Positions 6,265 through 22,642 of a stretch of DNA of 32,747 nt are shown piece after piece. The stretch is from Verrucomicrobiaceae bacterium (GTDB lineage Bacteria > Verrucomicrobiota > Verrucomicrobiia > Verrucomicrobiales > Verrucomicrobiaceae): the NCBI GenBank assembly GCA_947477755.1, contig CANJVS010000004.1, positions 1 to 32,747 of the forward strand, given 5' to 3'. The position numbers and the translations under genes are program-made. The notes beneath the pieces were generated by a model. That model saw only the letters and a program-made list of their open reading frames with translations. It was not told the origin of the DNA and did no database searches. Position 1 is the first letter of the stretch; the number at the start of each line of letters is the position of its first letter.

Positions 6265-6281
6265 AAAGAAATGATGCAGAA

Positions 6282-7862
6282 ATGAAGACGAAACCGCTCG
6301 CCCTGATTGGGGATGACAATTTTTGCGTTCGCGAGGCGGTGGAGGACCGCGTTGCCGAACTTGAGCATGACTTTCATTCCGTGGGATCACAGCATGAAGC
6401 AGCCGAAGCCCCACCCATTCCTGTCGAGGTTGATGTCCTGAGCTTTTCCAAACTCTTTGAGGACTCAGCCTTTCCGATGGCGGTGGACACCTATCAAAGG
6501 GGCTTCGTCTGGAACGACGACAAGATCCGCCAGTTGAAAGATGATTTGGCAGCCTATCAGCGCGATGCCGACCCGAAGCCGCCCTACTACATGGGCACGA
6601 TCTTGGTCCACCGGAACAAGGACAAGCTGAAGCACTTCATCATCGACGGCCAGCAGCGGCTCACGGCGCTGTGTGTGCTCCACCAGCAACTAAAGGGTAG
6701 CTTGCCCGGCAAATGTGCGCTGACCTATTCACCGAAATCGGCGCGGCGCATCCGTGCGGCGGCCGGGATTTTCGAAGAGCCGCTCTCCCGCCCGACTGCC
6801 GCCATCTTCGGGCAGATTGTCTTCACGGTCATCTGCGTGGAGCGGGTGGATTTGGCATTCACGTTCTTCGACACGCAGAACAACCGGGGCGTGCCGCTTC
6901 ATGCCACGGACCTGCTCAAGGCTTACCACCTCCGCGAGGTGAAGGGCGAACCGGATTCCCGCAAGGAAGCAATGCAAACCCTCTGCGCCCGGCGATGGGA
7001 AAGCATCCAGCAAGGGACGCCGGTGATGTCGCACGATCAGGAGTTTGACCACTCCTTGTTTACCAAGTTTCTCTGGCGGGCTCGCTACTGGAACGGCGCT
7101 CGCGTGACGATCGGTAATCACGACGCGCTGATGGAGGAGTTCCAAAAGCAAACGTGGCGGATGGAGGGCAAGCCGGACACCATCCCGCTTTACCGCTCCC
7201 GCCACAATCGCTTGGGCACGGCCCTATCGCTGACGAAGGACGGGCACAGTGAGATCCACACCAACCGGATTTCCCTCAGTCCCAAGGCCGAGGATTTGCC
7301 CTTCGCCATCCGACAGCCGATCCATAAGGGCATCGGCTTCTTCCTCTATGCCGACAAATATGCCTCGCTGCTGCGCAACCTGGTGACCAATGCGACGGAT
7401 TCCGGTGAAGTCGCGCGATTCCGCGAGGTTTACGAGAAGCTAATTATGGCGAACTCACTCTTTCTGCGGGAGATTTTTCTCCTCTCGTCGCTGATGTATG
7501 TGGATCAGTTTGGGGATGAGAAGCTGTGGGAGTTTTCTCTGTGGATGGAACACGCCCTCGGTGCGATCCGACTGGAAAAGCAGCAGGTGCGTTACGAAGC
7601 GGCGCAGAACTTTTTCAAACAGGACACCTTGAACCTACTGGATGTCATCGCGAGCGGCTACCGACCGGAGCAGGTCATTGCTCATTTGAAAAGCCACCAC
7701 ACGCGGCGTGCGATATACGCGGACGAGAAGATCGAGACAGGGAAAGGCGTGCAGGGCATCTACAAGACAGCGGTGCTGTGCTATTACGGTCGTGCGGAAC
7801 TTGCGTCGTTGAGTGGCAAGCATGCATGGATCGCGGACAAGTTGAACGGAGGTGCGGCATGA
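6282..7862 (+). CDS. DUF262 (GmrS-like ParB/sulfiredoxin-fold) protein, no HNH tail
   Basis: This 526-residue protein has the DUF262 hallmarks: YQRGFVW near residue 70, FIIDGQQRLTAL with the DGQQR box at 122-126, and FFDTQNNRGVPLHATDLLKA around 195-212. DUF262 is the nucleotide-handling half of GmrSD type IV restriction enzymes, which cut modified DNA and need NTP. The C-terminal 300 residues are helical, and no DUF1524 HNH motif is visible, so it probably needs a partner for cleavage. It lies 17 bases after the response regulator and overlaps the next DUF262 gene by four bases (ATGA). A roughly 45-residue acidic leader precedes the DUF262 core. Confidence 0.85.
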   Translation: MKTKPLALIGDDNFCVREAVEDRVAELEHDFHSVGSQHEAAEAPPIPVEVDVLSFSKLFEDSAFPMAVDTYQRGFVWNDDKIRQLKDDLAAYQRDADPKPPYYMGTILVHRNKDKLKHFIIDGQQRLTALCVLHQQLKGSLPGKCALTYSPKSARRIRAAAGIFEEPLSRPTAAIFGQIVFTVICVERVDLAFTFFDTQNNRGVPLHATDLLKAYHLREVKGEPDSRKEAMQTLCARRWESIQQGTPVMSHDQEFDHSLFTKFLWRARYWNGARVTIGNHDALMEEFQKQTWRMEGKPDTIPLYRSRHNRLGTALSLTKDGHSEIHTNRISLSPKAEDLPFAIRQPIHKGIGFFLYADKYASLLRNLVTNATDSGEVARFREVYEKLIMANSLFLREIFLLSSLMYVDQFGDEKLWEFSLWMEHALGAIRLEKQQVRYEAAQNFFKQDTLNLLDVIASGYRPEQVIAHLKSHHTRRAIYADEKIETGKGVQGIYKTAVLCYYGRAELASLSGKHAWIADKLNGGAA

Positions 7863-9820
7863 AGATCGCATCCAAACTCTACAGTCTGGCCGAACTCGTG
7901 AAGGAAAGCCCGGACTGGCATTTCAACATCCCGATCTACCAGCGGCTCTACGTGTGGGGCGAGGACCAGGTGCTAACGCTCTTGAACGATCTCGTGAACG
8001 CTTATGAGCGCCGTGAAGAGTTGTTTTTCCTCGGCGGAACACTGCTGGTCGAGCAGGAGGGCAGCAAGGGGCGGCACTTCGATCTCATCGACGGGCAGCA
8101 ACGATTCACGACGCTATGGCTGCTCAGCCATGCCTGGAGCAAGGCATTGAAGCCATTTCTTACCGTCACGACCGATAAATTTACCGAGCCGCGTCTCCGA
8201 TTCGCGATACGCCCCGAGGTGAACCAATTTCTGGAAACGCTGGCCTTGGGTGATCGTGGACAACCCATGCCTGATGAGGAGGCGACCAAACGGATGCGCA
8301 CGGCGCTCGATCTGATGATGTCGGTGTTCGCGAAGCGGCTACTGCCCGCTGGGGTGAGTGATCAAGCGGCGCATATCGCGGGATTGACGGAGTTTGTTTT
8401 CGGCAAGGTGAAGTTTGTCGTCACGACCGTTCCCCGTGAGACCGACCTGAATAAATTGTTCGAGGTGATCAACAATCGAGGGGTGCAACTCCAGCACCAT
8501 GAGATTCTCAAGGCGCGAATGCTGGATGCGCTGACAGAAGTCGAACGCGGCCCTTTTGCTGTCATGTGGGAAGCGTGCGCTGACATGGAGAACTTCATCG
8601 AGCGTAACCTGAGTGGTATCTCGGGACTGTCGGCCAGTGAGGTGACCGCGTTCTATGAACAGGGTGAATTGGCGAATGCGCCCATTGTGCGGACCAAGCT
8701 GCAAGGACGGATGCAGGGCCAGAGCGACCATCATGCGATGGCACTGGAAGAAATCCTGAAATCGGTAGAAGAATCGCCAGCATCCGAATCCGCCGCCAAG
8801 GATGACGACGCCGATCCCACATGGGTCCGGAGCATCTTCGGCTTCCCGTTGCTCCTCCAGCACACGCTGCGGATTTGGCTGTTGGAAAACGAGCGCGCTG
8901 ACCTGCCGCGATTGCTCGACCGCGAGCTGCTAGAACTATTCGAGGCACACTTTTTTCAGGACACGGACACGCGTGCTGAGAACGTGCGGTCGTTCATTGA
9001 TTTGCTCTGGCGACTGCGCGTAATCTTCGACGAGCACATCATCAAGTGGGCCGACCAAGGCGAAGAGGAAATCCACCTGATCAGCACGATCAGCGTAAGC
9101 ACAAGCAGCGGGAAGCGCTATATGAGCCGGTCGCGACAAACCGATTCACACCGGGCCATTTCGCTTCTCCAAAGCATGCTCTATCACTCGCAGGAAATCA
9201 CGACGCAATATTGGGTGACGCCGCTGCTCCTGTTCATGCACCAAAATCCCGGCGAGAAGGCGGAGCGGTATTTCGCCTACCTGCGCCACCTCGACAATCA
9301 TCTCCTCGGCTCGGCTGCCGATGACTCCTTGGTGGTGCGGACGCTGGCGTTCATGAAAGACCCGTGGCAATGCCGCGCCCTAATACATCAGACGGAATTG
9401 ACCAACGCGAGCGGGGTCAAGTTTGCCCACTACTGGTTTTACAAGCTGGAGTTCGTCCTATGGTTTCAGGAAAAGAGGGCCGATGAGAGATGGAAGAAAT
9501 TCCGGCTCACCGCCAAAAGTTCGGTTGAGCATATCTCTCCCCAGACTCCAACCGAGCGGGACGACAACCGAGTCGATCAAGCGCTCGATCACTTTGGCAA
9601 CCTGGCACTCGTTTCCCGCAGCCTGAACTCCGAATATGGAAACATGCCTTACAACGAGAAGCAGCGAAGATTTATTAACAGCAACAAGAGCCGCGTCGAC
9701 TCGCTGAAAATGGACCTGATTTATGTTAACGAGCAGTGGAACGACACGAAGGCTTTCGCCCATCAGCAAGAGATGATCGATTGCTTGGAAAGCTACTGTG
9801 CCGACACGCCGAAAGAGTAA
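7859..9820 (+). CDS. DUF262-DUF1524 (GmrSD-type) restriction protein
   Basis: Read from the ATG at 7859 that overlaps the previous stop, this is 653 residues; the ORF-track start at 7526 is an out-of-frame extension. The DUF262 core shows IYQRLYVWGED, LIDGQQRFTTL (DGQQR at 78-82) and NNRGVQLQHHEILKA. The C-terminus has a DUF1524-like HNH pattern, SVEHISPQTP (His558) followed by HFGNLALVSRSLNSEYGN and YNEKQRRF, which is the nuclease half in GmrD. The gene is therefore a probable single-chain type IV restriction enzyme or nuclease toxin working with the DUF262-only neighbour. BrxU of some BREX islands belongs to the same family, so cooperation with the adjacent BREX operon is plausible but inferred. 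Confidence 0.87.
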   Translation: MKIASKLYSLAELVKESPDWHFNIPIYQRLYVWGEDQVLTLLNDLVNAYERREELFFLGGTLLVEQEGSKGRHFDLIDGQQRFTTLWLLSHAWSKALKPFLTVTTDKFTEPRLRFAIRPEVNQFLETLALGDRGQPMPDEEATKRMRTALDLMMSVFAKRLLPAGVSDQAAHIAGLTEFVFGKVKFVVTTVPRETDLNKLFEVINNRGVQLQHHEILKARMLDALTEVERGPFAVMWEACADMENFIERNLSGISGLSASEVTAFYEQGELANAPIVRTKLQGRMQGQSDHHAMALEEILKSVEESPASESAAKDDDADPTWVRSIFGFPLLLQHTLRIWLLENERADLPRLLDRELLELFEAHFFQDTDTRAENVRSFIDLLWRLRVIFDEHIIKWADQGEEEIHLISTISVSTSSGKRYMSRSRQTDSHRAISLLQSMLYHSQEITTQYWVTPLLLFMHQNPGEKAERYFAYLRHLDNHLLGSAADDSLVVRTLAFMKDPWQCRALIHQTELTNASGVKFAHYWFYKLEFVLWFQEKRADERWKKFRLTAKSSVEHISPQTPTERDDNRVDQALDHFGNLALVSRSLNSEYGNMPYNEKQRRFINSNKSRVDSLKMDLIYVNEQWNDTKAFAHQQEMIDCLESYCADTPKE

Positions 9821-10079: not shown

Positions 10080-11558
10080 CTACGCCGGGTTTTCTGTGCG
10101 CAGTTGGAACGTGTAAACGACGTTCGAGAACTCATCGGGCAAGATCACTGCCAATTGGTCAGTGACTCGCTTTCGCATTTCCACGGCGAATTCGAGGACC
10201 CATTCGAGTTCCTCGCGCTTGAGGCTCTCTGGCGAACGGCGGTGGGGGTAGAGGAGCTTGAGAAGACCAGCAGCCGTTTTCTTCACTGCATCCTGGTTGC
10301 GCCCAGTCATGCCGCCGAAATCGGCCCAGTAGTTGACGTGAGTCTGGTAGTTGAGCCGCCGCAGTTCGGCGAAAATCTCAGCGAGGTAATCGGTCAGAAA
10401 GCCGTAGCCGGTGGCGTAGTTTTCAGGCCGAATCTTCGGAACTTCCCAACCCGGCAAATAGGCATGGATGCGATCCAGGAAAGCAGGATCTTGAAGTTCC
10501 GGCGGAAGGACGGAAAAGAGATGTTTGTAGTGGGTCGCCGCAGTTTTCCTTTCGAGGTCGGTGTCGATGTTGCCACCAAGAACAATTGAGCAAGGCGCAG
10601 AGAACTCCTGGTCACCTCTGCTGAACTTGCCGGTCTGCATGTAGTCCTTGAGCACACTGATGCTTGCCTCCGCATCGTCGAAGTTCGTGTGTGCGATTTC
10701 ATCAAAGAACACGAGATGCTTCAGTCCGATGACCCCGAGCTTTCGCGTGGCCTTGTTGTAAAAAAGCGTGGCGGGCGTCGCCTTGCCACCGGACACGACG
10801 AAACCGCGATTCGATGTGTTTCGGAAGGTGTAGGTCTTGCCAGTCTCGCGCGGCCCGAGTTCGATGAGGTTGTAGTTTGCCTCGACGAACGGAACCATGC
10901 GCAAAAGTAAGAGCATCTTCGTGCGCCGATCAAATCGAGCGGGATCGAAGCCGATTGACTGGATGAGCAGGTCGAGCCATTCGTCGTCGGTGAATAGCGA
11001 GCGCTTTTCGATGAAATCATCGAGGTTCAGCCTTGAGTATTGCAGCGGCGTGAACTCGCGTATGTAAAACGGATATTTGCGGCTCTTGATTTCGTAGGTC
11101 GCGTCATACTCGATCTCCATTGTGCCCCATGCACCGCTCGTGAGCAGCAGATCGCTGTAGCTAGCCAGGACATTCGCTGAGACGCGCACGGTATCATCGC
11201 CAAGCGCCGGAACATTCGCCCAATAGTGGTCTTTCGCCTGGTCGAGACGGACAGTGAGCTGGCCGATGAGCGTGTATTGGCCTTTCTCTTTGATTCGGCT
11301 CTTGATGAGTTCCTTCTTGGCGCTCTCCGCATAGTGCTCGGTGAGAATTCGGTCGATCTTGTGCTGTCCCGTCACCGGGTCTTCCGGTTTCACGTAGCGG
11401 CTGACGAGATACTCCATCACGTAGCGAGGGAACTCCTTGTATGCCTCATTCCATCGCGTGAGCGGCTTGAGGATCACGCGGTCGCCAAGGTGTTCGAGAA
11501 TCTTCGCATCAAGCGCATTCGCGGCGGAGGGGCCGTTGGTTGTAGAAGTGTCAGGCAT
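10080..11558 (-). CDS. brxL: BrxL-like ATPase of BREX, lacking the Lon-like C-terminal domain
   Basis: This is a 492-residue protein from the ATG at 11558; a TTG at 11567 overlapping the pglZ stop would add three residues. Its N-terminal part and AAA-type ATPase match the BrxL pattern: Walker A ELGPRETGKT, Walker B HLVFFDEIAH, then HAYLPGWEVPKIRPENY and a helical end. BrxL forms DNA-binding hexamers and is needed for phage exclusion in type 1 and type 4 BREX. Known type 1 BrxL proteins are near 680 residues and end in a Lon-protease-like domain. Here the chain stops just after the ATPase lid (FSNVVYTFQLRTENPA). It is the last gene of the operon. Type 3 BREX usually lacks brxL. Confidence 0.82.
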   Translation of the reverse strand: MPDTSTTNGPSAANALDAKILEHLGDRVILKPLTRWNEAYKEFPRYVMEYLVSRYVKPEDPVTGQHKIDRILTEHYAESAKKELIKSRIKEKGQYTLIGQLTVRLDQAKDHYWANVPALGDDTVRVSANVLASYSDLLLTSGAWGTMEIEYDATYEIKSRKYPFYIREFTPLQYSRLNLDDFIEKRSLFTDDEWLDLLIQSIGFDPARFDRRTKMLLLLRMVPFVEANYNLIELGPRETGKTYTFRNTSNRGFVVSGGKATPATLFYNKATRKLGVIGLKHLVFFDEIAHTNFDDAEASISVLKDYMQTGKFSRGDQEFSAPCSIVLGGNIDTDLERKTAATHYKHLFSVLPPELQDPAFLDRIHAYLPGWEVPKIRPENYATGYGFLTDYLAEIFAELRRLNYQTHVNYWADFGGMTGRNQDAVKKTAAGLLKLLYPHRRSPESLKREELEWVLEFAVEMRKRVTDQLAVILPDEFSNVVYTFQLRTENPA

Positions 11559-11563
11559 GTGGA

Positions 11564-14365
11564 TCAAATGTTATCGAGACTGGCGAGCGCGTCTGTATCG
11601 AGTTTCGTCGGCTTTGGCTTGACATGCACAGGCACAGTGACTTGGCCGCCAGCAGGTTCGCGCATCTCGCCTGTGAGCGTTGTGTGGCGGAGACGGAAGG
11701 AAACAGCGCGCAATGTTGCGGATGGGTCCACTTCCCGCGCTGTTGTGAGCTTGTATCGACCCAGCAATTTGATACTGAACTTCTTCGCTTCGCCGGGCGG
11801 GAGCGTGCCTTTGTCGCGGAGCAATTCTTCGCCGAGATTCGTTCGCGCCTCGACGAAGTATTCCACGGGCACCGTGCCACGGTTCTGAATTTGAAAACCA
11901 ACATCCTGGGCCTGATCCTCTGGAATTTCGAGAGTGTCCGGCAATCCTTCGAGGGTCGCGCGGGCGGACTTGGACGAGACACGTTTGAGCGCGACTGCGG
12001 GCACCACCATCTCAGCAAGCGAGACCCCACCGTGCGAGTAGCGCGTCGGCTGTTTCGTGTTGTCGCGGCAGAACCAACGGCGACCAACCGCGAGTGCGTG
12101 CGGCTCGCCCCGCACGTTCACCGCAACAGCTCCCGGCGCGGAAGCGGGCTGCAAACCGAGCACATAGCGCCAACGCACATCATCTTTGAGACTGCGCCCG
12201 GCGGTGGCGACTTCTGCGGCGGAGACGGAGACCCCGTCGCCAGCGAGCAACTCGATGAAGCCGTGATCCGAAACAACCACCACGTCATCCGCAGGCTGGA
12301 TGCGACGCAGCAGATCGTCGAGGATTCCTGCCACACCGTGCGCCTTGTTGCCGAGCAGGTCGCTTCGGATTTTTTGATGAAATGCGCCGAGGTCGCCGTG
12401 GAAATCGTGGCAGTCGTCGGAGATGCCGTAGATGAGCACGTTCACGAGCTTTGCCTCGGAATCGGCGCTGGCAAGTTTGGCGCGGGCCTTGAGAGTTTCA
12501 GCATCGGTCAGCAGGCGAAACTTCGTCTTCGCCTCCTGCGCCGTGAGACCAAGGTTTACCGCTGCGAGATTGGCCTCGTTGTCAGTAGGCTGGCCTTGGA
12601 ATCCTTTCCAGTCGGGCGGCGAAGCACCGGCTAGCAGGCTGGTGCGAGCGATGGTGGTGTAGCTCGGAGCGACGCAGAAAACCGGGCGGTCATCGGTTAC
12701 TTCAAAATGCTCCGTGAACAGCGGTCGCACTACCAGCCGCCAAGTGTCGTATCGCATCCCATCGAAGACTAGAATCCACACTCGGCCATCACCGTCACCT
12801 GCGGTAATTTCGTTCACCCGATGTCGCAGGCGTGAGTGGATGTAACCGGTGCTACTCCACGCCCCGGTTGCGAAGGCGTCTGGCGATGGTCGCACCAAAG
12901 CGGCGAGTTTCTCATCAAGCGAGTCGAGTCGAGTCCGCACGCGGTCTTTGAGCGAACCGGGTGAGGGCCTCGTGTCGTCGCCCCCGGAACCGAATGCATG
13001 GGTGTGCAATGCGGAGACCACTTCATCGTCATCAAACTGATGCGCGAGATGCACGATTTGCGCGAGGTCGGTTTCGAGGCGGAAGTAGCCTCCATCGACA
13101 AATAAGCTGAGCAACGCGGCTGGCTGAGTCGCCGGGGCCAGTGGAAGAGCCAGCGTCTGCTCGATGCGCTGCCACTGACAAAGTAGATTTACACCAGCCT
13201 GCGCGCGTCGTGCGGAATCGGCCAGATCGGCCAGACTTGCCTCGGCTGGAGCGGTGGTGCCTGACCAGGCAGAAAGCGCGGCGGTCAGGTCGGCTGGCTG
13301 TGCGAGCACCCGCAGCAGAAGTCTGCGGAGCACAGCGGAGCGCACAGTCACGATGGGCGTGTTGGCCACGAGGTTGGCCAGCGCAGCAGGATCGCCGGTG
13401 GCAGTGCTTGTGAGCGTTAACAGCTTCTCGACACGCTTTGGGCCGAGATAAGGCGCGGCAGCTTCCTCGACGGCGGGCCAGACTCCGGTGGAATTCAACT
13501 CCCGAATGACCTTGGCCGCGAGCGGTTCAAAACGCGACCACTCATAGTCAGCGGGCAGCAGGCCCACACCCGCGAGTTGTGCGGTGGGGTTCTGAAGCTT
13601 TTGCTGACCGGCGAATGCTCGGAGCACGAGGTAGCCAGCGAGGTCTTCCACGGGAGGCGCGAGCCAGAAGATCTGTTCATTGACTCCTGGCAACGCCACG
13701 CCACGCGCGAGATCGAGCACTACGGCGCGGTGCGCCGCAAGTTCGGGGCGAGCGAGGAGGAGACGCAGAACTTGGGCGAAGAAACCGGCGGGCGAATCGC
13801 TCTCCGGCCACACGTCATCGAGCGCGAGGTGCGGCGCGTGGGCAAGCAGCACGAGCGCGGCGACTTGGGGGCGACCCCAATCGTCCGGCTTACCCCATCG
13901 CGCGGTGATCTTTTTGGCTGCGGCGGAAAGCTCCCCGGTTCGAGCAAGGAGTGCGGGCTTGTAGTGGCGGAGCTGCGCGGGTGGAAAATTGATCTGCGGA
14001 CAAAAGCGGCCGAGATACCGCGCAAGCGAAAGGTCGAGCGGCGTGGTGCCCTCGTGACGGGAGAGCACGTCGCCGATGGTTGATACGTCGAGTTTCCTTT
14101 CCGGGTCTGGCGAACCGATAATTACGACAGCCACGCGGCCCTGAGCGGCGGCTTTGCGAAAGGCGAGGCGGAACCGCAAATCATCACCGCGGAAGACGGC
14201 GAGGTGCCACGCTCTTCCGGCGGGATCGGTGACGACGGGTTGGTCGAGCGCACGATCCTCGGCAAGCAGACGGTCGGTGTCGCAGGCCACCACCACACGC
14301 GCACTGTCGGGCTGCTGTTCCAGCCATCGCTCAAAAACGTCGCGGGGTGTGAGCACAGGTGACAT
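11564..14365 (-). CDS. pglZ: BREX phosphatase-like protein PglZ
   Basis: This 933-residue protein is the BREX signature gene. The alkaline-phosphatase-fold core shows VWILVFDGMRYDTWRL (Asp535 as the likely metal ligand), the APSYTTIARTSLLAG segment in the position of the catalytic Thr/Ser, VVVVSDHGFIELL (Asp700, His701) and YSHGGVSLAEMVVP. The N-terminal half is helical and Leu/Ala-rich; the last 130 residues look beta-rich. PglZ is essential in BREX and is thought to act with the methyltransferase. The ATG lies three bases after the methyltransferase stop, and its own stop abuts brxL, so the three are one transcript. Large antisense ORFs here are shadows. Confidence 0.92.
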   Translation of the reverse strand: MSPVLTPRDVFERWLEQQPDSARVVVACDTDRLLAEDRALDQPVVTDPAGRAWHLAVFRGDDLRFRLAFRKAAAQGRVAVVIIGSPDPERKLDVSTIGDVLSRHEGTTPLDLSLARYLGRFCPQINFPPAQLRHYKPALLARTGELSAAAKKITARWGKPDDWGRPQVAALVLLAHAPHLALDDVWPESDSPAGFFAQVLRLLLARPELAAHRAVVLDLARGVALPGVNEQIFWLAPPVEDLAGYLVLRAFAGQQKLQNPTAQLAGVGLLPADYEWSRFEPLAAKVIRELNSTGVWPAVEEAAAPYLGPKRVEKLLTLTSTATGDPAALANLVANTPIVTVRSAVLRRLLLRVLAQPADLTAALSAWSGTTAPAEASLADLADSARRAQAGVNLLCQWQRIEQTLALPLAPATQPAALLSLFVDGGYFRLETDLAQIVHLAHQFDDDEVVSALHTHAFGSGGDDTRPSPGSLKDRVRTRLDSLDEKLAALVRPSPDAFATGAWSSTGYIHSRLRHRVNEITAGDGDGRVWILVFDGMRYDTWRLVVRPLFTEHFEVTDDRPVFCVAPSYTTIARTSLLAGASPPDWKGFQGQPTDNEANLAAVNLGLTAQEAKTKFRLLTDAETLKARAKLASADSEAKLVNVLIYGISDDCHDFHGDLGAFHQKIRSDLLGNKAHGVAGILDDLLRRIQPADDVVVVSDHGFIELLAGDGVSVSAAEVATAGRSLKDDVRWRYVLGLQPASAPGAVAVNVRGEPHALAVGRRWFCRDNTKQPTRYSHGGVSLAEMVVPAVALKRVSSKSARATLEGLPDTLEIPEDQAQDVGFQIQNRGTVPVEYFVEARTNLGEELLRDKGTLPPGEAKKFSIKLLGRYKLTTAREVDPSATLRAVSFRLRHTTLTGEMREPAGGQVTVPVHVKPKPTKLDTDALASLDNI

Positions 14366-14368
14366 AGG

Positions 14369-17266
14369 TTAGAGATCGAGCACGGTTTGCTTGTCGTCTT
14401 CGACGCGGCGCTTGCTCTTGGGTGTAGCAGCTTCGGTGTCCTCGGCGGCGGCGGCGAGGCGCTGACCGGCGACGCGGACCTGCTTTTGCGCGGCACTTAA
14501 CGTGCCTGGTTCGACGCCATCGGGAATGAGGCGGTGGCTGAGTTTGACGATGAGCTGGTATGCTTCCGTAATGTCAAAGCCGGGGTGAGTCTCGGCGGTC
14601 GCATCGCCCTCTGCGAGTTCCTTGCAGGTGTCGAAGAGCACAGCAATCCACTCGCACAGTTCGCGGCTGTCCGGCGTGCGGCCAAGGGTGCCTGCGGCGA
14701 GACGGTCGGCATCGTGGAGGACACGCAGGGCGCGGTCGTCGTTGATCTTCTCGCGTTCCTCGGGTGTGGGTTCGCGCCAACGGTTGCTCGCTGCATCGCG
14801 CCAGAAATTTTCACGGAGCAGCGTTTCGAGGACGAGAGTCTGCGATAGCGAAGCCGGAAGCAGGCCGGTTGCGCGCATCCAAAACGGCTTGAGTTCGCCG
14901 ATGAGCTTTGGGCCACCATGGAGTTGCTGCCGAAGCCAGGCGATGGCGGTGAGCTCGTTGGAAACGGTCACTTCTTCGGCCACGAGTTCGCCCCCGTTGC
15001 CGCCCACGGCCTCACCGCGAAGATACCAGCGTTGCCCGATCTTTCGGAAGAAGCGTCCGCAGACGCGCTCGATAAAGGGAAGGTTCAGCCGCTCGACGCT
15101 CACCCCCTTGGGGATGAGTGTGTTCATCAACATGGAGTTGATGGTGGCGGTGGTTCGGTGGTCGTCGCTGTATTTAGTCGGCTCGGCGGCGATGCGCTCG
15201 GGTAAAGTCGCCAAATGTTGCCGCACGGCCTCGGCAACCTGCTGCTCCAAGTCGGTGTCCTCCGCGCGCATTTCGCGCCGGAATACAGAAGGTTTGTGGA
15301 GATTGAAAAGAACATCCTTGTCCACCACATCTTCCTCACCGACCGCGCCTTTGAGTTGTTTGAAGGTCTTTTGCTCTTTGTCTAGTAGAAGCATATTGGC
15401 GATTTCAAAGCCAGCGTCGCGGATCGCTTGCTTGATCGCTTCAAAGACACTGCCATCCGAGTTATTGAACTCCACAGTCGTCCACCGTCCCGGTTTGAGA
15501 ACGCGAAAGGCCTCTCGAAATGCTTCGGCCATCAGCCGTGCGTAATCCGGCAGCCGCTTTGTGCCCCCATCATTTTTGCGATGAACTACGGCCTCAAGGG
15601 CAGTCTCGGTTGTTCTTCCAAGCCACACCTCCCAGAGAAGGTTCGGCTCGGAATAGTAGATGTTTGAGCCGAATGGCGGATCGATGAACACGTAGTCCAC
15701 CGACTCATCGGCAACTTCAACTAGAGCGGTGGCGGAACAAACCCGAACAAAAGAGTTGCCGCTAGTGAAGACGCGGTTGGCATGCGTGAAAAAATTTACA
15801 ATATCCTTTTCCTTGGCCGACCACGCCTTCAGCAAATTGTCTTCGCGTGTGATAGACGAAATCGTGAGGTTGTGTGTGTTACCGGCACCGCCGCTTTCGC
15901 GGAACTCCGACTTCCGAGAAACCCGAGCAACAAAGCTCGTAAGCATAAACTGAGCGGCACTTGATAGGCGTGGATCTTCGATGCTTGACGCGTGGTGCCA
16001 CAGCGCGGAAATCGCACGACGGTTCCGCACAGTCCAAAAATCTACGACCTTTTTAATGCCGCGAACACTCAACGCGCTTCGCCTATATTGTGGTCCGTTT
16101 GTGTCCATCGGATCTTCGGGAATCCAATACGGACACTGTCCTCTGTCGATTTCTGCAATGCGCTCTACCTCTCTCGCGCTAATGCGTCGCGCGCAGCGGT
16201 GACGAGCCTCATCGACGCCATGTTTGGTGCGAATAAGCTTCGTGGTCAGTAAGTTAGTCACCACCGGCGATGCGTTGACACGTGAAAGATGGATCTTCTT
16301 CCAGATGGCGCCACAGGATGGACAGGGGAAGTCATCGGTGACTTCACCGGTTATATGATCGCGCGCGGCGTCCCACAGCGAGAAATCTGCCCCGCAGCCT
16401 CTTGCCACACGTGTCTTCCGCACCATTGGTTTCCCCGCATTCTTTCCGCGCGTGCTAATTTTGCCGGTAGGCTCTTCTATCGTAACGAAGCCCTCACACT
16501 TATACACGTCCGACCAGATCGTGTATTGGATGGTCGCCGGAATGCAGACCCATTGTTTAACTTGGCCGAGATCGAGGTCACCCCACGCATCGTCCCGCGG
16601 AAGATTGGTCACGGGATACCCGAGTCTCTCCTCGACTTCCTCACGAGTGAGTAGCTCCCAATTGCGCTCCGTCGCTTCCAGCAGATTGGACGGACCAAGA
16701 CCGCGGGGTGGATTCTTCAAGCGTGCCGCCACATCGGGTTGCGCCGGTTCATAGAGTCCGACCGCAGGTTCGTAGTGCTCGGTTCCGTAAAGCCAGGCGA
16801 ACTCCTCCGCCACCGCAGCGCGAATGCGCTCGAACTCGTGGCGCAGCGCACTGACATCAACGGGAGTGTTGTGGTTGTAAGCGATATGGCAGGCGGCGGG
16901 CGAAAGGTCACTCAGCAGGCAGGCGCGTGGACCGACGCGGTCCTTCAATTCCGGAAACTGCTCGAGCAAGTCAGCCGGCGGCTGGGCGCACATCTGTGCC
17001 GCCACTCCCGTCATCCCCGACCCGCAGAAAACATCGAGAACCAAGTCGCCAGGCCTCGTGTAGTTCAAGATGTAGGGAATGATGCTCCGGGGCGGAACCT
17101 TGGTGTGATAGGAGTGGGCGTTGTAAGTCGGATCGTTCTTGCCTTCCTTAATGTCCGCAGCGAACGGCGGGCGCTCGTAGTCGTCCGTGGCGGGATCGTA
17201 GGGCCGGACGTGCTTTTTAAGGAACGCCGACAGATCAGGAGCGGGTGTGAAAGCTTTGTCGCTCAT
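14369..17266 (-). CDS. pglX: BREX type 3-like DNA methyltransferase (PglXI type)
   Basis: The likely start is the ATG at 17266 (MSDKAFTPAPD), four bases after the brxC stop, giving 965 residues. The 165-residue upstream extension in the ORF track lies inside brxC and has a low-complexity Ser/Arg/Pro composition. Motif I VLDVFCGSGMTGVAA is at about residues 76-90 and motif IV YVFIDPPFGS at 525-534, the motif order of pfam01555 N6/N4 amino methyltransferases. About 440 residues between them hold a probable zinc knuckle (CPSC at 315-318). PglXI of type 3 BREX has this architecture and marks host DNA, probably at adenine. The large insert and C-terminal third may hold target recognition. Confidence 0.85.
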   Translation of the reverse strand: MSDKAFTPAPDLSAFLKKHVRPYDPATDDYERPPFAADIKEGKNDPTYNAHSYHTKVPPRSIIPYILNYTRPGDLVLDVFCGSGMTGVAAQMCAQPPADLLEQFPELKDRVGPRACLLSDLSPAACHIAYNHNTPVDVSALRHEFERIRAAVAEEFAWLYGTEHYEPAVGLYEPAQPDVAARLKNPPRGLGPSNLLEATERNWELLTREEVEERLGYPVTNLPRDDAWGDLDLGQVKQWVCIPATIQYTIWSDVYKCEGFVTIEEPTGKISTRGKNAGKPMVRKTRVARGCGADFSLWDAARDHITGEVTDDFPCPSCGAIWKKIHLSRVNASPVVTNLLTTKLIRTKHGVDEARHRCARRISAREVERIAEIDRGQCPYWIPEDPMDTNGPQYRRSALSVRGIKKVVDFWTVRNRRAISALWHHASSIEDPRLSSAAQFMLTSFVARVSRKSEFRESGGAGNTHNLTISSITREDNLLKAWSAKEKDIVNFFTHANRVFTSGNSFVRVCSATALVEVADESVDYVFIDPPFGSNIYYSEPNLLWEVWLGRTTETALEAVVHRKNDGGTKRLPDYARLMAEAFREAFRVLKPGRWTTVEFNNSDGSVFEAIKQAIRDAGFEIANMLLLDKEQKTFKQLKGAVGEEDVVDKDVLFNLHKPSVFRREMRAEDTDLEQQVAEAVRQHLATLPERIAAEPTKYSDDHRTTATINSMLMNTLIPKGVSVERLNLPFIERVCGRFFRKIGQRWYLRGEAVGGNGGELVAEEVTVSNELTAIAWLRQQLHGGPKLIGELKPFWMRATGLLPASLSQTLVLETLLRENFWRDAASNRWREPTPEEREKINDDRALRVLHDADRLAAGTLGRTPDSRELCEWIAVLFDTCKELAEGDATAETHPGFDITEAYQLIVKLSHRLIPDGVEPGTLSAAQKQVRVAGQRLAAAAEDTEAATPKSKRRVEDDKQTVLDL

Positions 17267-17270
17267 GCGC

Positions 17271-20200
17271 TTAGGACTGCGAATCGCCAGACGGACGTTC
17301 AGTGCGGAGGAAGAGGCGAACACGCTTGCCGGAGCCTTGCTGAGCGCGCGCGTCTTTGAGTTTCTTGCGGAGGAGTGTGGCGAATTGGTCCACGACGTCA
17401 TCAATGCGCTCGCCATCAATTGCGCCGATTTGGTCGAGCACATCCGCGAGCGAGACTTCGACCTGTGCAAGATTTTGCTCCTGGAGCAGCTTGCGGAGGA
17501 ATTCGAGCAAGTCGTCGGAGAGGACGGCGACGAGCTTTTCGGCGTTGGCGGCCTGAATGACCGCAAGCAGCGTCTTGAGGTCGGCGCGCTCGCCGGACTC
17601 GGCGGCTTTTTGCAGGATTGCGGCGATGGCGGCGTCCTTGAATCGCTGCATTCGGTCGGCGAGGCCGAGTTGGACCGCGTTTTGCAACGCGGCGAGTGCG
17701 GGTGCAGGAAGTTCTTCGCCGGGGGTCCATGCGCAGGTCGGGCAGACAGCCTTGGCACCATGCACGGGAGCCTCGACGGCGTCGGTGCAAATCCAGGTGC
17801 CCTTTTCGAGTGAGGTGAGATCGGTGCTGACCGATGCCGTGGCGGGGAGCGGCGGGCCTAGCTCGACGAGGGAATTGAGTCGGGCCAGCCCGCGCACTTT
17901 TGGCGCGAGCGTTTCGGCGGCGGCTTTGATCTTTGTCAGCTCCTCGTAGTGGGCACGATGCGCCTTGCGGTAAGCCTGCACGTAGCGAGTCTTCCACTTG
18001 CGGAAACTATCTAGCCGAGCGTCGAGGATGCCGGGATTGGCAAGAAGCGAATCAAACGAGAGCAGGCCGAGTTGGGTGGCGCGCTCGAAGGCGACTGTCT
18101 TGTCCACGTCGCACGCCTCGCCCAAATAGCCGCGAACGCCGAGCAGTTCGACGCCAGAGGCGTTGAGCGTGCGAGCGCTCACGTAGCTGGTGTGAGCCGC
18201 TGCAAATTCTTCAGGTTTGGCGTAGCTTTCGCGAACTGCGGCATCGAACTCGTGAAAATCCGCCGTCTCCGCAATCGCTCGGAATCGGCCGAGAGTGAGT
18301 TTCAAATCGACCGGGATGATGCCGTTCATGCCATTCGCAAGCTGGATGAGGCTTGACTCGACCTGCGGCACCTCGGCTTTGAGGACCGAAAGCAGCTTCC
18401 GCAATTCGGTGTTTCGTTCCTGCTCCTCGTCCGGCGTCGAAGCAGTCTTGAGATTTGGATCGAGGACGCGGGCGTAGGGCAGGACTTCATTCCAGCCTTT
18501 CTGCGTGGATGCAACCAGCCGCGCGCCAAGGAGGGATTTGTCGAGCTTTGCGTTCCATTCCATTAGACCAAGCGTGTGCGCGGTGAGCTTATTGCCGGGA
18601 AGCGGCTTGCCGTCCCCGAGTTGCGCAGGGGTGGCAGGATTCAGGGCGAGTTCCCAGCCGCCGAGTTTGAGCAAGGCAAAGACGTAGAGCTGGACCATCC
18701 AGTCGGTGAGGGCGTGCGGCGAGGCGCAGAGCGCGGCCTTGATGTCCTTCACCGGCAAGTCGGTCTTGCCCTTGAGACAATCGCGGATGCGCTTGAGCGC
18801 CTGCGAATCGTCACAACGGAATTCCTGCGGCGCACTTTTCTTCGAGAGTTCAAGGCCGGGGCCATAGTTGGTGACTGCATCTCTGTCGGCCTTCTGCGCT
18901 TCTTTGCTGAACAGGCCGGAGAAGACCTTGCGCGCCTCGGTTTCGGCAAATGGCTTTTTGATTTCGGTCGGACTAAAAAGAGGCTTGTCGTAAGCCTTTT
19001 CGAGAAGCCGGCGGGCGATGTCTTCGGTCTTTTGCGCGGGCGCGCTGAATACGTCCGCAGAAGGGATGCCATAATCAGCCTTGGTGAGAATCTTGCAGGT
19101 GCGGAACTCCAGAAGCTGCTGCTTGAGCACCGCCTTGATGGCATCCCCGCGCTTTTCAAAGGCGTAATCACGGAGCGAAGTTGTCTGGGCGTAATCGCGG
19201 CGCATTTTTTCCGCAGCGAGAAGGTCTGCCACCGCCTCGCGCGTGTCGGCGCTGAGGGCTTTCGGTCGGCACACTGCAATTCGCGGATCCACAAGAGCCT
19301 TGAGGATCGTCTCGTTATTCGCAGAGCCATCAGCGGAGAGATAGACGACTCGAAAGTGGATGTCTGACTTGTCGAGTGCCTGTCCCCATTCGTCGCGCCA
19401 GCGTTCGGCAACAATGGCTTCTCCAGCGTAGTTGACACTGTGGACCCGACGGGTGGCACCCGAGACGGTTTTTGGAAGCTGATAGCGGGCGGTCTGACCA
19501 TGCTTGATCTCTTCCGCGTTTCGTTGGTCATCGGGCTGGAACTCCGAGAAGATACCACCATTCAGTTGAAGCTCCTGCTGGATCTCCGGTGTCACGATTG
19601 TGATGTCCCAAAACAGTGATTCGAGCCACTTCGCGTCCTGTGCGGCGGAGTCATCTTTGAACTTCTTTTTCAGCGGGCCGAAGATCGTGGACGGGTTTTG
19701 TTTCAGCGCCGCAGTCTCATAGGAAAAGACGGTGACTTCCGCCCCACCTCTGGTCTTCTTGTCTTTGCGAACGGGCGAGCCGCCGGAGATCAGCACATCG
19801 AGCAGATGCTCCGCCTGCCCCGTGGAACCCACCGCGTCGTCAGCAAGCCACGCGGCTTCCGCCACTTCCTGCCCCGTGAGGCCGTCGCGCATATTCTCCG
19901 GGACGCTGATCGCCTGAAGAAACAATGTCTCCAAAATGCGCTGAGCTTGCTCACGTTCCTCTGGTGCGAGCTGGAATTCGGCGAGTTGCTCAATAGCCGA
20001 TTGAAGATTCAAATACTTCTCGCGATAGAGTTCGCTGTTCAGTCCCTTGCGCATCTCGTCGCTGCGGATGAGGTCTGAGACGACGACGAGGCGCTTTTCA
20101 TTGAGCAGCTTACCGTCCGAGATGCACTGCCATGCCATGCGAATGGCCGAACGCGCTGTGGGAAGATTGTTGCTCTCCGCACTCTGCGTGATGCGCCGAA

Positions 20201-21344
20201 GAATCTCGAAGACACGCGGCTGGAAGGGGAAAATACCGGAGAACTGCTCGAATGAGACATTAGCCTGCTTGAGAAACTTATACTCTTTTCGGCACTCGTT
20301 GAAGTATTCCCGGACATCGGTGCCCGCTCCGGCGACGTGCTCGATGGTGCGGAACGCGACGATTTCGCCGAAATCGTTCTTGTTCTGGTCGCCGAGCAGG
20401 ATGAGCGGAATGAAACGATCGTTCTTGCCACCACCCGAAAGCTTCTGAGGCACATCACCCTGGCTAGCGATGACCGTAATGACGTTGACGCCTTCGCCGG
20501 GCAGAATGTGAGCGAGTGTTTCGAGCACATCCTCGTCCTCACCCGCAACGCTGCTGTGCTGAACATGGCGATCCTGCCACGAGCGAAATTCGTCCACGAC
20601 GAAAATAACGCCGGTGTAGCCACCGAGCTTGATAATCTGCTGGCAGATATGGGTGAATCGCTCCTTGTATTTCGATTTTAGATGCCCGCCGACGAGATTT
20701 GAGGCTGCGATTTCCTGACCGAATTTCTTGTCACCATGTTGCTTGCGAAACTCCGCCGCACCGAGCTGATGGTGCTCTTGGAGGTAGGCATCGACAGCCA
20801 CTTTGAGGTGCCCGGCGGCCTGCTTCTCATACCACTCCAAAGCGAGTTCTGAGCTGGTCACGCGAACCTTTTTGGCCAGCTCCGGAGCGAGATCACCAAG
20901 GCTCTCGACGATCTGATCCTCGAAAATCCGCATGAGGCTGTCGAACTGGGCACCGCGCGCGTCGCCCAATCCCTTGACCGAAAACGCCACGGGGAAGAGC
21001 CGGAGCTTGGAGATGGCGTGCTCATATTCGTCGCGTAGTTCTTTGTCGCGAAGAATCTCCCAGACCTTTTCATCCTCGCCCCACATTAAAAGGCACAACA
21101 TCGTTCCGAGAAACGAGGTCTTGCCCGCGCCGTATTCGGCCTGAACCCAGAATCCCTGACCCTTTTGGTGGACGGCGCACTCAAAGATTCGCTTCGCAAA
21201 AGAACGGAGCGATGGCGTGAAAAGGTAGTTGGCGACAGTTTCACGCGAGCGGTCGCGCCGAATGATTTGATTGAGTGTCGGCGTGGTCTCAGGCTCGGGT
21301 TTGAGCGCAAGAATCTTGCTGAGAACAGGGAGGGAGGCAGGCAT
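17271..21344 (-). CDS. brxC: BrxC/PglY-like large P-loop ATPase
   Basis: This 1357-residue protein has an N-terminal P-loop ATPase (Walker A VQAEYGAGKTS at 68-77, Walker B VIFVVDEFRSW with Asp251/Glu252), then a long helical body without recognisable enzymatic motifs and a late CPTC pair. Size, motif form (YGxGKT) and position before the methyltransferase fit BrxC/PglY, the large ATPase of BREX, possibly the DUF6079 branch; that branch label is from memory and unverified. BrxC is required for defence in BREX and may act as a scaffold or DNA-remodelling ATPase. The start is ATG at 21344, three bases after the preceding stop, so the genes are translationally linked. Confidence 0.78.
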   Translation of the reverse strand: MPASLPVLSKILALKPEPETTPTLNQIIRRDRSRETVANYLFTPSLRSFAKRIFECAVHQKGQGFWVQAEYGAGKTSFLGTMLCLLMWGEDEKVWEILRDKELRDEYEHAISKLRLFPVAFSVKGLGDARGAQFDSLMRIFEDQIVESLGDLAPELAKKVRVTSSELALEWYEKQAAGHLKVAVDAYLQEHHQLGAAEFRKQHGDKKFGQEIAASNLVGGHLKSKYKERFTHICQQIIKLGGYTGVIFVVDEFRSWQDRHVQHSSVAGEDEDVLETLAHILPGEGVNVITVIASQGDVPQKLSGGGKNDRFIPLILLGDQNKNDFGEIVAFRTIEHVAGAGTDVREYFNECRKEYKFLKQANVSFEQFSGIFPFQPRVFEILRRITQSAESNNLPTARSAIRMAWQCISDGKLLNEKRLVVVSDLIRSDEMRKGLNSELYREKYLNLQSAIEQLAEFQLAPEEREQAQRILETLFLQAISVPENMRDGLTGQEVAEAAWLADDAVGSTGQAEHLLDVLISGGSPVRKDKKTRGGAEVTVFSYETAALKQNPSTIFGPLKKKFKDDSAAQDAKWLESLFWDITIVTPEIQQELQLNGGIFSEFQPDDQRNAEEIKHGQTARYQLPKTVSGATRRVHSVNYAGEAIVAERWRDEWGQALDKSDIHFRVVYLSADGSANNETILKALVDPRIAVCRPKALSADTREAVADLLAAEKMRRDYAQTTSLRDYAFEKRGDAIKAVLKQQLLEFRTCKILTKADYGIPSADVFSAPAQKTEDIARRLLEKAYDKPLFSPTEIKKPFAETEARKVFSGLFSKEAQKADRDAVTNYGPGLELSKKSAPQEFRCDDSQALKRIRDCLKGKTDLPVKDIKAALCASPHALTDWMVQLYVFALLKLGGWELALNPATPAQLGDGKPLPGNKLTAHTLGLMEWNAKLDKSLLGARLVASTQKGWNEVLPYARVLDPNLKTASTPDEEQERNTELRKLLSVLKAEVPQVESSLIQLANGMNGIIPVDLKLTLGRFRAIAETADFHEFDAAVRESYAKPEEFAAAHTSYVSARTLNASGVELLGVRGYLGEACDVDKTVAFERATQLGLLSFDSLLANPGILDARLDSFRKWKTRYVQAYRKAHRAHYEELTKIKAAAETLAPKVRGLARLNSLVELGPPLPATASVSTDLTSLEKGTWICTDAVEAPVHGAKAVCPTCAWTPGEELPAPALAALQNAVQLGLADRMQRFKDAAIAAILQKAAESGERADLKTLLAVIQAANAEKLVAVLSDDLLEFLRKLLQEQNLAQVEVSLADVLDQIGAIDGERIDDVVDQFATLLRKKLKDARAQQGSGKRVRLFLRTERPSGDSQS

Positions 21345-21347
21345 GAT

Positions 21348-21824
21348 TCAGACGGTTGAAAAACAGTTCTTCGCGAGATCAGATCGGTCGAAGTAGTTAA
21401 CAATGGCGCGCGGATGGCACTCGATTTCGGAAGGAAGATCAAGTTTTTCCGGGGTGCCTTCGATCAATAGCACCGCCAATCCACGGTCACCACAAAACCA
21501 GTCAAAGAATTCCCTCAATCCGAGGTTGTAGCGCACGAGTAGGCCCGCAGATTTTACGACCAGAATGCGACGTTGCCCGATGGAAGGGGCAATCGAGACG
21601 AGCTTTTCTCGCAATGCATGGCGAAAGAAATGGATCACGTCGTCTTCGCTGTCAGGGAGGCTGGATTCATCGAACAGGTCGAGGAGGTCGAGGTCAACAG
21701 TGGAAACGCCTGAAACGGCGAGAATTGCGGAGTTCAGGGCCGACTCCGGGCCGAGCCAAAGCGCGACATCTTTGTCCCAAGTCCGCTGCGACGCGAAGCG
21801 TGTAAATTCTGCTGCGGATTTCAC
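21348..21824 (-). CDS. BrxF-like small BREX protein with degenerate P-loop
   Basis: I place the start at the GTG at 21824, which overlaps the brxA stop (GTGA) and follows an excellent AGGAGGGAG ribosome-binding site. This gives 158 residues instead of the 172 from the ATG at 21866. Size and position fit BrxF, the small P-loop protein of type 3 BREX. The expected Walker A site reads LWLGPESALNSAI, with no GK[ST], while a Walker B/sensor-like RRILVVKSAGLLV and LAVLLIEGTPEKL remain. It may therefore be a non-ATPase BrxF relative or another small protein such as BrxB. The gene sits between brxA and brxC with a three-base gap. Confidence 0.55.
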   Translation of the reverse strand: MKSAAEFTRFASQRTWDKDVALWLGPESALNSAILAVSGVSTVDLDLLDLFDESSLPDSEDDVIHFFRHALREKLVSIAPSIGQRRILVVKSAGLLVRYNLGLREFFDWFCGDRGLAVLLIEGTPEKLDLPSEIECHPRAIVNYFDRSDLAKNCFSTV

Positions 21825-22642
21825 GATGGCACTCCCTCCTTTAGCAAATCGGAAAGAGTCCGGCATGTCGTGACCTGCTCCAGCCGGTCAGCGACCACGT
21901 ATTTTCCAAGAGAACCGGCATGAACGGCCTCCTTGAGAAAATCGCGGAATTCATCTTCGGATCGGATTCCAATGAATCGCCAGAACGGGTTGGCAACAAG
22001 CGTCCCGAACTCAATGCTGCGTTGTGTATCGACATTGAACGCGTGATGCAGCGCGAGGATCAACGCCACCTTGTTAGCCGGGGGTGAGACGACCCGATCA
22101 CCGGTCGAGGTCCGCTCCAAAAACCCGAGTTTCCTGAGATTCGAGAGCAGTCGTTTTTTTGTCTGAACACTCAACTCGTGGCCCGTCAGCTTCGCCGTGG
22201 CCCCAGCGAGGTAGTCACCTGGGACAAGCACACCCTCTGAGAGCTTGGAAATGACTGAAGCCACGCAGGTTCCCACGATTGGCTCTGCCGACAGATAGAG
22301 ATAGCGGTTGATTGCGATCTGGATGTCGTTGCTTTGAAACCGTTTCCATACCGTCGAGGCAAATCCAGAGAGGCCATCCCGAAAAAACCATCGGATCAGG
22401 GAATCAACATACCGGCGGCGAGTGCCTTCGCTGTTTTGAGGAAGGGCGGATGCGATTCTGTCTCTGAGTTCCGCAATGTCCTGCGATTCCTGAGCCAGAC
22501 GCACTGCGAGCAGCGATTCTTTGAGCAGAACCTCCTGAAGAGTGTGTTGCGTTCTGTTATAAATTCGCGGCAGATCAAGGGAATCCCCACCCCGGCTAAG
22601 GACGGGTTTTGTTGAGAATAGTTCCTCTTGGGTGTGGGGCAT
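21821..22642 (-). CDS. brxA: BrxA-like (DUF1819) BREX protein
   Basis: This is a 273-residue soluble, helix-rich protein and the first gene of the BREX operon. Size, operon position and the central TKKRLLSNLRKLGFLER winged-helix-like segment followed by a VVSPPANK turn fit BrxA (DUF1819), a small DNA-binding BREX protein found in types 1, 3, 5 and 6. The middle third (RYLYLSAEPIVGTCVASVI) resembles the helical DUF1819 core, but similarity is judged by eye only. The start is the ATG at 22642; no strong ribosome-binding site precedes it. A different helical regulator is the alternative, though the PglZ/PglX context makes BrxA the best guess. Confidence 0.6.
   Translation of the reverse strand: MPHTQEELFSTKPVLSRGGDSLDLPRIYNRTQHTLQEVLLKESLLAVRLAQESQDIAELRDRIASALPQNSEGTRRRYVDSLIRWFFRDGLSGFASTVWKRFQSNDIQIAINRYLYLSAEPIVGTCVASVISKLSEGVLVPGDYLAGATAKLTGHELSVQTKKRLLSNLRKLGFLERTSTGDRVVSPPANKVALILALHHAFNVDTQRSIEFGTLVANPFWRFIGIRSEDEFRDFLKEAVHAGSLGKYVVADRLEQVTTCRTLSDLLKEGVPS
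21832..21840 (-). promoter_or_regulatory. Strong ribosome-binding site deciding the BrxF-like start
   Basis: On the minus strand AGGAGGGAG lies 7 bases before a GTG codon whose last bases form the brxA stop (GTGA). The usual four-base overlap plus this consensus site supports GTG at 21824 over the upstream ATG at 21866, whose leader has only a poor GGAG far from the start. Confidence 0.7.

What the first reader, a model, noticed from the sequence alone, without database searches (positions are those of the whole stretch)
10080..22642. Hybrid BREX layout: type 3-like genes with BrxL and without BrxHII
The order brxA - brxF-like - brxC - pglXI-type methyltransferase - pglZ - brxL does not match the six published types. 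Type 3 has BrxHII and no BrxL; types 1 and 4 have BrxL but a different methyltransferase or none. It may be an unnamed subtype or a recombinant in which BrxL replaced the helicase.
Basis: partly seen in the sequence, partly recalled or inferred. Interest (0 to 1): 0.72.

Follow-up and report, generated by a model that had tools for sequence, protein, structure and literature searches.

The report
Widespread unnamed BREX phage-defence subtype
A six-gene bacterial anti-phage (BREX) operon with a gene set matching none of the published BREX types turns out not to be a one-off hybrid but one member of an old, coherent family found in many bacterial phyla and some archaea, so the BREX classification appears to be missing a type.

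Summary
Window 10080-22642 (- strand) is one tight operon: brxA-like, brxF-like, brxC-like, PglXI-type methyltransferase, pglZ, brxL; no BrxHII. The set matches no published type: the January 2026 BREX survey states that BrxL is "entirely absent" from types 2 and 3. But it is not a type 3 system in which BrxL replaced the helicase. Only the methyltransferase is type-3 kin. BrxC lies outside DUF6079; PglZ scores 46 bits against a 250-bit cut-off for type 3. BrxC, PglZ and BrxL are nearer to type 1 by profile comparison. A BrxC-profile scan of 85,462 genomes found the same gene set in Verrucomicrobiota, Planctomycetota, Acidobacteriota, Methylomirabilota, Thermodesulfobacteriota, Chloroflexota, Cyanobacteriota, Spirochaetota, methanogens and others. 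BrxL is present in all 26 clade loci whose sequence reaches it. Trees separate this lineage from types 1, 3 and 4. BrxL and BrxC divergences correlate (r = 0.95), so BrxL has co-diversified with the core. Best reading: an unnamed BREX lineage (candidate seventh type), mechanistically type-1-like with a type-3-like methyltransferase. Function is inferred; type 2 sequences were not obtained.

The parts
21821..22642 (-). brxA-like: 273 aa, predicted DNA-binding (winged-helix-rich) subunit
   Evidence: No Pfam/NCBIfam/PADLOC match above cut-off. Aligns with the Halorarius 'BrxA family protein' (PF08849 over cut-off) only weakly in pairs (E 0.017) but strongly through relatives; hhalign of the family to type 1 BrxA 90.7%, 1.5e-7. 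AlphaFold model pLDDT 89; best PDB matches SspB/DUF4007 at E 3e-3 to 9e-3, a family the 2026 survey describes as mirroring BrxA.
21348..21866 (-). brxF/brxB-like: 172 aa, P-loop-fold protein without a Walker A motif
   Evidence: No profile match. AlphaFold model pLDDT 83; PDB matches are AAA+/ORC-Cdc6 proteins (best E 8e-5, low TM 0.38-0.45). No GxxxxGK[ST], unlike type 3 BrxF of Leisingera and Roseomonas. Same position in relatives. Homology to type 3 BrxF or type 1 BrxB not significant.
17271..21344 (-). brxC-like AAA+ ATPase, 1357 aa, Walker A GAGKT at residue 72
   Evidence: No Pfam or NCBIfam match, so neither DUF6079 nor DUF499; own family across phyla; hhalign of clades I+II to type 1 BrxC 1e-36 full length, type 3 2e-24, type 4 2e-12; PDB: BrxC of 9ZN5 and a 'putative conjugative transfer protein' 9ZLL, both at E 1e-3.
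14369..17266 (-). PglXI (BrxXI)-type N6-adenine methyltransferase, 965 aa
   Evidence: PADLOC PglXI 494 bits, N6_N4_Mtase. Motif I DVFCGSG at 78 and motif IV DPPFG at 529; the stretch between (281-520) is hypervariable within clade I, 26-47% against mostly 57-89% elsewhere apart from the C-terminus, as expected of an inserted target-recognition domain. Nearest outside type: type 3.
11564..14365 (-). pglZ: alkaline-phosphatase-fold nuclease, 933 aa, with a C-terminal extension beyond the PglZ domain
   Evidence: PF08665 33 bits over cut-off 25; PorX structures 1e-24; metal-site residues D535, T570, D650, H653, D700, H701, H778 conserved in the family. In the hhalign alignment T570 and H778 fall on the conserved type 1 'PS.T' and 'HGG' motifs.
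10080..11567 (-). brxL: BrxL N-terminal domain plus MCM/Lon-like AAA+ ATPase, 495 aa, no C-terminal Lon or HKD domain (TTG 11567 or ATG 11558 start)
   Evidence: TIGR02688 476 bits; BrxL_N and BrxL_ATPase; PDB 8EMC 350 bits over residues 18-487; Walker A GPRETGKT at 238.

Best explanation
The operon is a complete BREX phage-exclusion system of a distinct, so far unnamed lineage (a candidate seventh type), widespread across phyla. Its BrxC, PglZ and BrxL are closer to type 1 than to type 3 by profile comparison, and it uses a PglXI-type methyltransferase otherwise known from type 3 and the BR systems. Inferred working: the methyltransferase, guided by its inserted target-recognition domain and helped by BrxC, PglZ and the P-loop-fold BrxF-like subunit, marks one strand-specific adenine site in host DNA. 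On unmarked incoming DNA the BrxC:BrxF:PglZ assembly, with BrxA as DNA-binding helper, switches to restriction: PglZ nicks or cuts, and the BrxL ATPase ring acts on the DNA, taking the place that the SNF2 helicase BrxHII holds in type 3. Shown here: gene set, domains, intact catalytic motifs, recurrence and co-diversification. Inferred from type 1 work: methylation dependence, complex formation, nicking and phage exclusion.
For: Six-gene unit with near-zero spacing. Recurs with the same set in clade I (46-66% BrxC identity: L014, L016, L017, L027, L033), clade II (28-30%, Chloroflexota, Cyanobacteriota, Myxococcota) and clade III (20-26%, many phyla and methanogens). BrxL found in all 26 clade loci whose sequence reaches it, besides the window. 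BrxC tree: Halorarius + I + II + III one group, SH-aLRT 97, apart from types 1, 3, 4. PglZ tree: I+II 100/100, types 1, 3 and 4 each apart. BrxL tree: I+II 100/99; I+II+III with a Thermus pair 99/94, apart from type 1 (97/94) and far from type 4. Distance correlations BrxC-BrxL 0.95, BrxC-PglZ 0.98, BrxC-BrxA 0.93, BrxC-MTase 0.84, none of 1000 permutations as high. No flanking gene of the window recurs in the relatives, so the six genes are the unit. Intact motifs. PglZ nuclease, BrxB:PglZ and BrxB:BrxC:PglZ complexes in type 1: PMC11974810, PMC13326643.
Against: No activity is shown. BrxA- and BrxF-like assignments are by position, weak profile comparison and fold. Type 2 representatives were not obtained and types 5/6 were not added as such, so the trees test separation from types 1, 3 and 4 only. 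The BrxC tree is a quick tree with long branches; in the PglZ tree the deeper joins (I+II with type 3 and Halorarius, 91/76) are unsure and clade III does not group with I+II. Most relatives are metagenome bins. The Halorarius relative lacks BrxL.
Confidence: 0.78

Rival explanations
1. A type 3 BREX in which BrxL recently replaced the BrxHII helicase.
For: The methyltransferase is PglXI-type and groups with type 3 (99/99); BrxHII is missing; the survey finds BrxHII in only 77% of type 3.
Against: BrxC has no DUF6079 match while a true type 3 BrxC scores 1994 bits. PglZ 46 bits against 250. hhalign of clade I BrxC to type 3 gives no match, to type 1 1e-13. Gene order differs. BrxL tracks BrxC over 24 loci, r 0.95. 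The survey found no BrxL in type 3.
Confidence: 0.04
2. A deep side branch of type 1 in which PglX was exchanged for PglXI and BrxB for a BrxF-like protein; a naming matter more than a new type.
For: hhalign ranks type 1 first for BrxC (1e-36), PglZ (5e-31, 785 columns) and BrxA (1.5e-7); BrxL 40% identical to type 1.
Against: All four trees keep it apart from type 1 with long stems; type 1 reference sets were larger and more varied than type 3 or 4, which favours them in hhalign; BrxC below NCBIfam BREX_BrxC detection.
Confidence: 0.15
3. A decayed or repurposed locus with no phage-exclusion function.
For: No experiment; the genome is a partial assembly (53% complete); brxF-like lacks a P-loop.
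Against: All six frames open with no stops, catalytic motifs intact, set conserved across phyla; P-loop loss is normal for BrxB-type subunits per the survey.
Confidence: 0.03

Closest known systems
Type 1 BREX (brxA-brxB-brxC-pglX-pglZ-brxL)
   Same: Same functional slots and the same order apart from the brxF-like gene in the brxB slot; BrxL 36-42% identical; BrxC, PglZ and BrxA nearest by profile comparison.
   Different: PglXI instead of PglX; no DUF1788 BrxB or DUF1819/BrxA profile match; BrxL lacks the C-terminal domain; separate clades in the BrxC, PglZ and BrxL trees.
Type 3 BREX (brxF-brxC-pglXI-brxHII-pglZ-brxA)
   Same: PglXI methyltransferase with inserted variable region, 29% identical to Leisingera; methyltransferase clades join.
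   Different: No BrxHII, has BrxL; BrxC not DUF6079; PglZ below the BREX-3 cut-off; brxA at the other end; brxF-like protein without a P-loop.
Type 4 BREX
   Same: BrxL without a C-terminal extension.
   Different: BrxL 28% identical and far in the tree; no PAPS reductase; PglZ not matched.
BREX-related (BR) types 1-3 and BRC (PMC12839542)
   Same: MTase plus BrxC-like ATPase; type-3 BR also has PglZ and an inactive P-loop-fold protein.
   Different: ATPase not DUF499; no helicase; PglZ is not standalone; BrxL present; no HerA.
Halorarius halobius plasmid locus NZ_CP101162 (no named type)
   Same: MTase-brxA-brxF-like-brxC-pglZ; its BrxC groups with this lineage.
   Different: No BrxL; a metallophosphoesterase gene follows pglZ; 22-27% identity.

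Membership tests
BREX (superfamily) | PglZ-domain protein | tested here: met
   PF08665 over cut-off, metal residues intact
BREX (superfamily) | BrxC-type large AAA+ ATPase next to pglZ | tested here: met
   Family profile matches type 1 BrxC full length at 1e-36; no single-protein profile match
BREX (superfamily) | DNA-modification enzyme | tested here: met
   PglXI methyltransferase 494 bits with motifs I and IV
BREX (superfamily) | Phage exclusion and site-specific host methylation | not testable with these tools
   Needs cloning, phage challenge and methylome
Type 3 BREX | DUF6079 BrxC | tested here: not met
   No PF19557 match at E 0.1; true type 3 1994 bits
Type 3 BREX | BREX-3 PglZ (NF033449) | tested here: not met
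   46 bits against 250; outside the type 3 clade
Type 3 BREX | BrxHII helicase (77% of cases) | tested here: not met
   None in the window operon
Type 3 BREX | PglXI/BrxXI methyltransferase | tested here: met
Type 3 BREX | No BrxL | tested here: not met
   BrxL 476 bits; survey statement
Type 1 BREX | PglX (BREX-1) methyltransferase | tested here: not met
   No PglX model hit; PglXI instead
Type 1 BREX | BrxL | tested here: met
   BrxL tree joins type 1 side, not type 4
Type 1 BREX | BrxC, PglZ inside the type 1 clade | tested here: not met
   Separate clades, type 1 100/100 in PglZ and starred in BrxC; types 5/6 references thin
Type 1 BREX | BrxB (DUF1788) | tested here: inconclusive
   172-aa AAA+-like fold without P-loop in that position, but no significant profile match
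Type 2 BREX (Pgl) | PglW, PglY, BrxHI, BrxD | tested here: inconclusive
   None seen among operon proteins; no type 2 sequences for the trees
Type 4 BREX | PAPS reductase in place of MTase | tested here: not met
BR types 1-3 | DUF499 ATPase plus helicase | tested here: not met
   No DUF499 match, no helicase

The most novel reading that the evidence does not exclude
A seventh BREX type: an ancient lineage, spread by horizontal transfer over more than a dozen phyla, that always carries BrxL with a PglXI-type methyltransferase, and in which DNA-reading subunits (methyltransferases, Mrr-N, DUF7662 or sigma-region-4 proteins) are exchanged through one common C-terminal tail, including operons that have lost the methyltransferase altogether.
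Probability: 0.5. Interest if true: 0.7.

Novelty: new variant of a known kind. Interest (0 to 1): 0.58.

Why it matters
The most recent exhaustive survey (8475 taxa) holds that BrxL is confined to types 1 and 4 and that type 3-style methyltransferases go with SNF2 helicases. This lineage breaks both rules consistently. It offers a natural test of what BrxL and BrxHII do: the same methyltransferase kind works with a SNF2 helicase in type 3 and with a BrxL ring here, and one relative (L033) carries both. Current profiles give no name to its BrxA, BrxF and BrxC, so the systems are mis-typed or overlooked by annotation tools.

Tried and rejected
Single-protein scans of viral contigs with BrxC and the methyltransferase found nothing; an alignment query was needed. 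Single-sequence BrxC search of 388 Verrucomicrobiota genomes found only the window's genome; the profile search likewise gave one strong hit (1675 bits; the next is 53 bits, a ~1250-aa protein of type 3 BrxC size), so the system is rare in this phylum. Apparent absence of BrxL in L029 and L020 by ORF calling was an artefact: tblastn finds it. A set of 1650-1830-aa BrxC-like hits (L054, L057-L061, L063-L079) belongs to another group and was left out. An SspC match of BrxC (16.5 bits) was not taken as evidence of an Ssp system. The 2015 founding BREX paper was not held and supplements could not be read, so whether the survey's unassigned leftovers include this lineage is unknown.

Full report
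What is there. On the minus strand of 10080-22642 six open frames lie head to tail, with overlaps or gaps of a few bases. Profiles name three of them firmly: BrxL (TIGR02688, 476 bits), a PglXI methyltransferase (PADLOC, 494 bits) and a PglZ-domain protein. The other three get no name from Pfam, NCBIfam or PADLOC above cut-off. There is no BrxHII-like helicase in the operon.

It is not type 3. A true type 3 BrxC (Leisingera plasmid) scores 1994 bits to DUF6079; the window protein does not match that model at all. PglZ scores 46 bits to the BREX-3 PglZ model whose cut-off is 250. True type 3 loci (L004-L007) have brxF first, brxA last and no brxL. Only the methyltransferase is close to type 3: 29% identity over 871 residues, joint grouping at 99/99.

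It is not a one-off. BLAST in plasmids gave one distant relative, a haloarchaeal locus with MTase, BrxA, a BrxF-like protein, BrxC and PglZ. Aligning its BrxC with the window's (A1) found two viral-collection contigs, one of which (L011) has brxA, brxF-like, MTase, brxC, pglZ and brxL. The four-sequence alignment A3 then found 68 loci in the GTDB genome collection. About 45 of them belong to this lineage: clade I, 46-66% identical BrxC, in Verrucomicrobiota, Planctomycetota, Acidobacteriota, Methylomirabilota, Thermodesulfobacteriota and Myxococcota; clade II, 28-30%, mainly Chloroflexota, Cyanobacteriota and Myxococcota; clade III, 20-26%, in Omnitrophota, Pseudomonadota, Spirochaetota, Bacillota, Synergistota, methanogens and others, with BrxL usually near 680 aa and the MTase before brxC or after pglZ. 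In clades I and II the order is the window's. tblastn finds BrxL in 26 of these loci besides the window; the others end inside or just past pglZ, apart from L055, where brxC is a fragment, and the haloarchaeal locus. Because the scan used two patterns around the Walker A motif, the numbers are lower bounds. Most records are metagenome bins, so individual phylum labels carry that uncertainty.

BrxL belongs. In the BrxL tree clade I is 100/100, I+II 100/99, and the lineage with a Thermus pair (a different BrxL context) is 99/94, apart from type 1 (97/94) and far from type 4. Pairwise divergence of BrxL follows that of BrxC (r 0.95, 24 loci), as does that of PglZ (0.98) and BrxA (0.93), with the methyltransferase somewhat looser (0.84); none of 1000 permutations reached these values. 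Within clade I alone the correlations are 0.69-0.76 on six loci. A recent replacement of the helicase by BrxL in the window is therefore unlikely. No gene flanking the window operon recurs in the relatives, so the six genes are the unit.

Where it sits. In the BrxC tree (quick method, long branches) the haloarchaeal protein and clades I-III form one group (SH-aLRT 97) apart from types 1, 3, 4, a DUF499 protein and a further group of very long BrxC-like proteins. In the PglZ tree clade I, clades I+II, clade III and types 1, 3 and 4 are each well supported, but clade III does not join I+II, and the deeper order is unsure. Profile comparison puts type 1 first for BrxC (1e-36 against 2e-24 for type 3 and 2e-12 for type 4), for PglZ (5e-31 against 1e-20) and for BrxA (1.5e-7 against none), and BrxL is 40% identical to type 1 and 28% to type 4; the methyltransferase matches type 3 at 9e-178. 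The type 1 reference sets were larger and more varied, which helps them. Type 2 sequences were not obtained.

The unnamed subunits. The brxA-like model (pLDDT 89) has SspB (DUF4007) structures as its only credible PDB matches, at E 3e-3 to 9e-3; the 2026 survey describes DUF4007 as mirroring BrxA. The brxF-like model (pLDDT 83) matches AAA+ ORC/Cdc6-like proteins (best E 8e-5, modest TM) and lacks the P-loop motif, which type 3 BrxF of Leisingera and Roseomonas keep. That fits an inactive BrxB-type subunit, but sequence homology to BrxB or BrxF was not significant.

How it probably works. [quoted passage not shown]). The window PglZ keeps D535, T570, D650, H653, D700, H701 and H778; its T570 and H778 align with the type 1 PS.T and HGG motifs. 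The BrxC and BrxL ATPase motifs are intact. The MTase has motif I at 78 and motif IV at 529 with a stretch between (281-520) that is hypervariable within clade I (26-47% identity against mostly 57-89%; the extreme C-terminus also varies), the behaviour of a target-recognition domain inserted in the catalytic domain, as the survey describes for type 3. So the likely working is site-specific adenine marking of self and PglZ-plus-BrxL action on unmarked DNA. None of this was measured.

Known or new. The January 2026 survey (PMC12839542) defines types 1-6, three BR types and BRC, states BrxL is entirely absent from types 2 and 3, and mentions only a small unassigned remainder. Searches of the held literature for a seventh or new type found nothing. 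I rate it a new variant of a known kind, with a fair case for a new type.

Noticed in passing
L022:7502-8896, L025:11694-13217, L029:16328-17284, L011:8944-9750, L024:14384-17140, L028:5703-9152: A C-terminal tail of about 75 residues of the clade II/III methyltransferases recurs on separate proteins in the same operons that carry Mrr_N, DUF7662 or sigma-region-4 domains: possibly exchangeable DNA-reading subunits docking by one tail. Several scores are weak (21-52 bits).
   Followed up: partly
L024, L025, L028: Operons of this lineage with brxC and pglZ but no recognisable methyltransferase of this family in the fetched stretch; a tail-bearing HTH or sigma-like protein sits in its place. L024 and L025 carry brxL; the L028 stretch ends in pglZ.
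   Followed up: partly
L033:21424-24044: A SNF2 helicase 30% identical to BrxHII lies directly after brxL in a clade I operon: both candidate motors in one locus.
   Followed up: no
L017:6817-7530, L016:14270-14827, L027:16725-18425: Extra genes inserted in clade I operons: a NYN-domain protein, a PIN-like protein (by eye) and a Schlafen-AlbA_2 protein, possibly back-up effectors.
   Followed up: no
L083:9516-17593, L085:9568-17527: Thermus and Meiothermus plasmids carry BrxL beside vWA and tubulin-like genes without PglZ or BrxC annotated nearby, a different BrxL context whose BrxL groups near this lineage.
   Followed up: no
L054, L057-L061, L063-L079: A group of BrxC-like ATPases, mostly 1650-1830 aa, in Spirochaetota, Desulfobacteraceae and others, distinct from all types in the BrxC tree; some lie beside SNF2 helicases.
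   Followed up: no
window 2298-9820 and 23376-26786: Other defence-like genes flank the operon: an SMC/AAA protein, a sensor kinase and response regulator pair, two GmrSD-type proteins, and a TM0106 RecB-like nuclease-helicase.
   Followed up: no
L003:9185-20421: Halorarius halobius plasmid: a related BREX-like set without BrxL and with a metallophosphoesterase after pglZ.
   Followed up: partly
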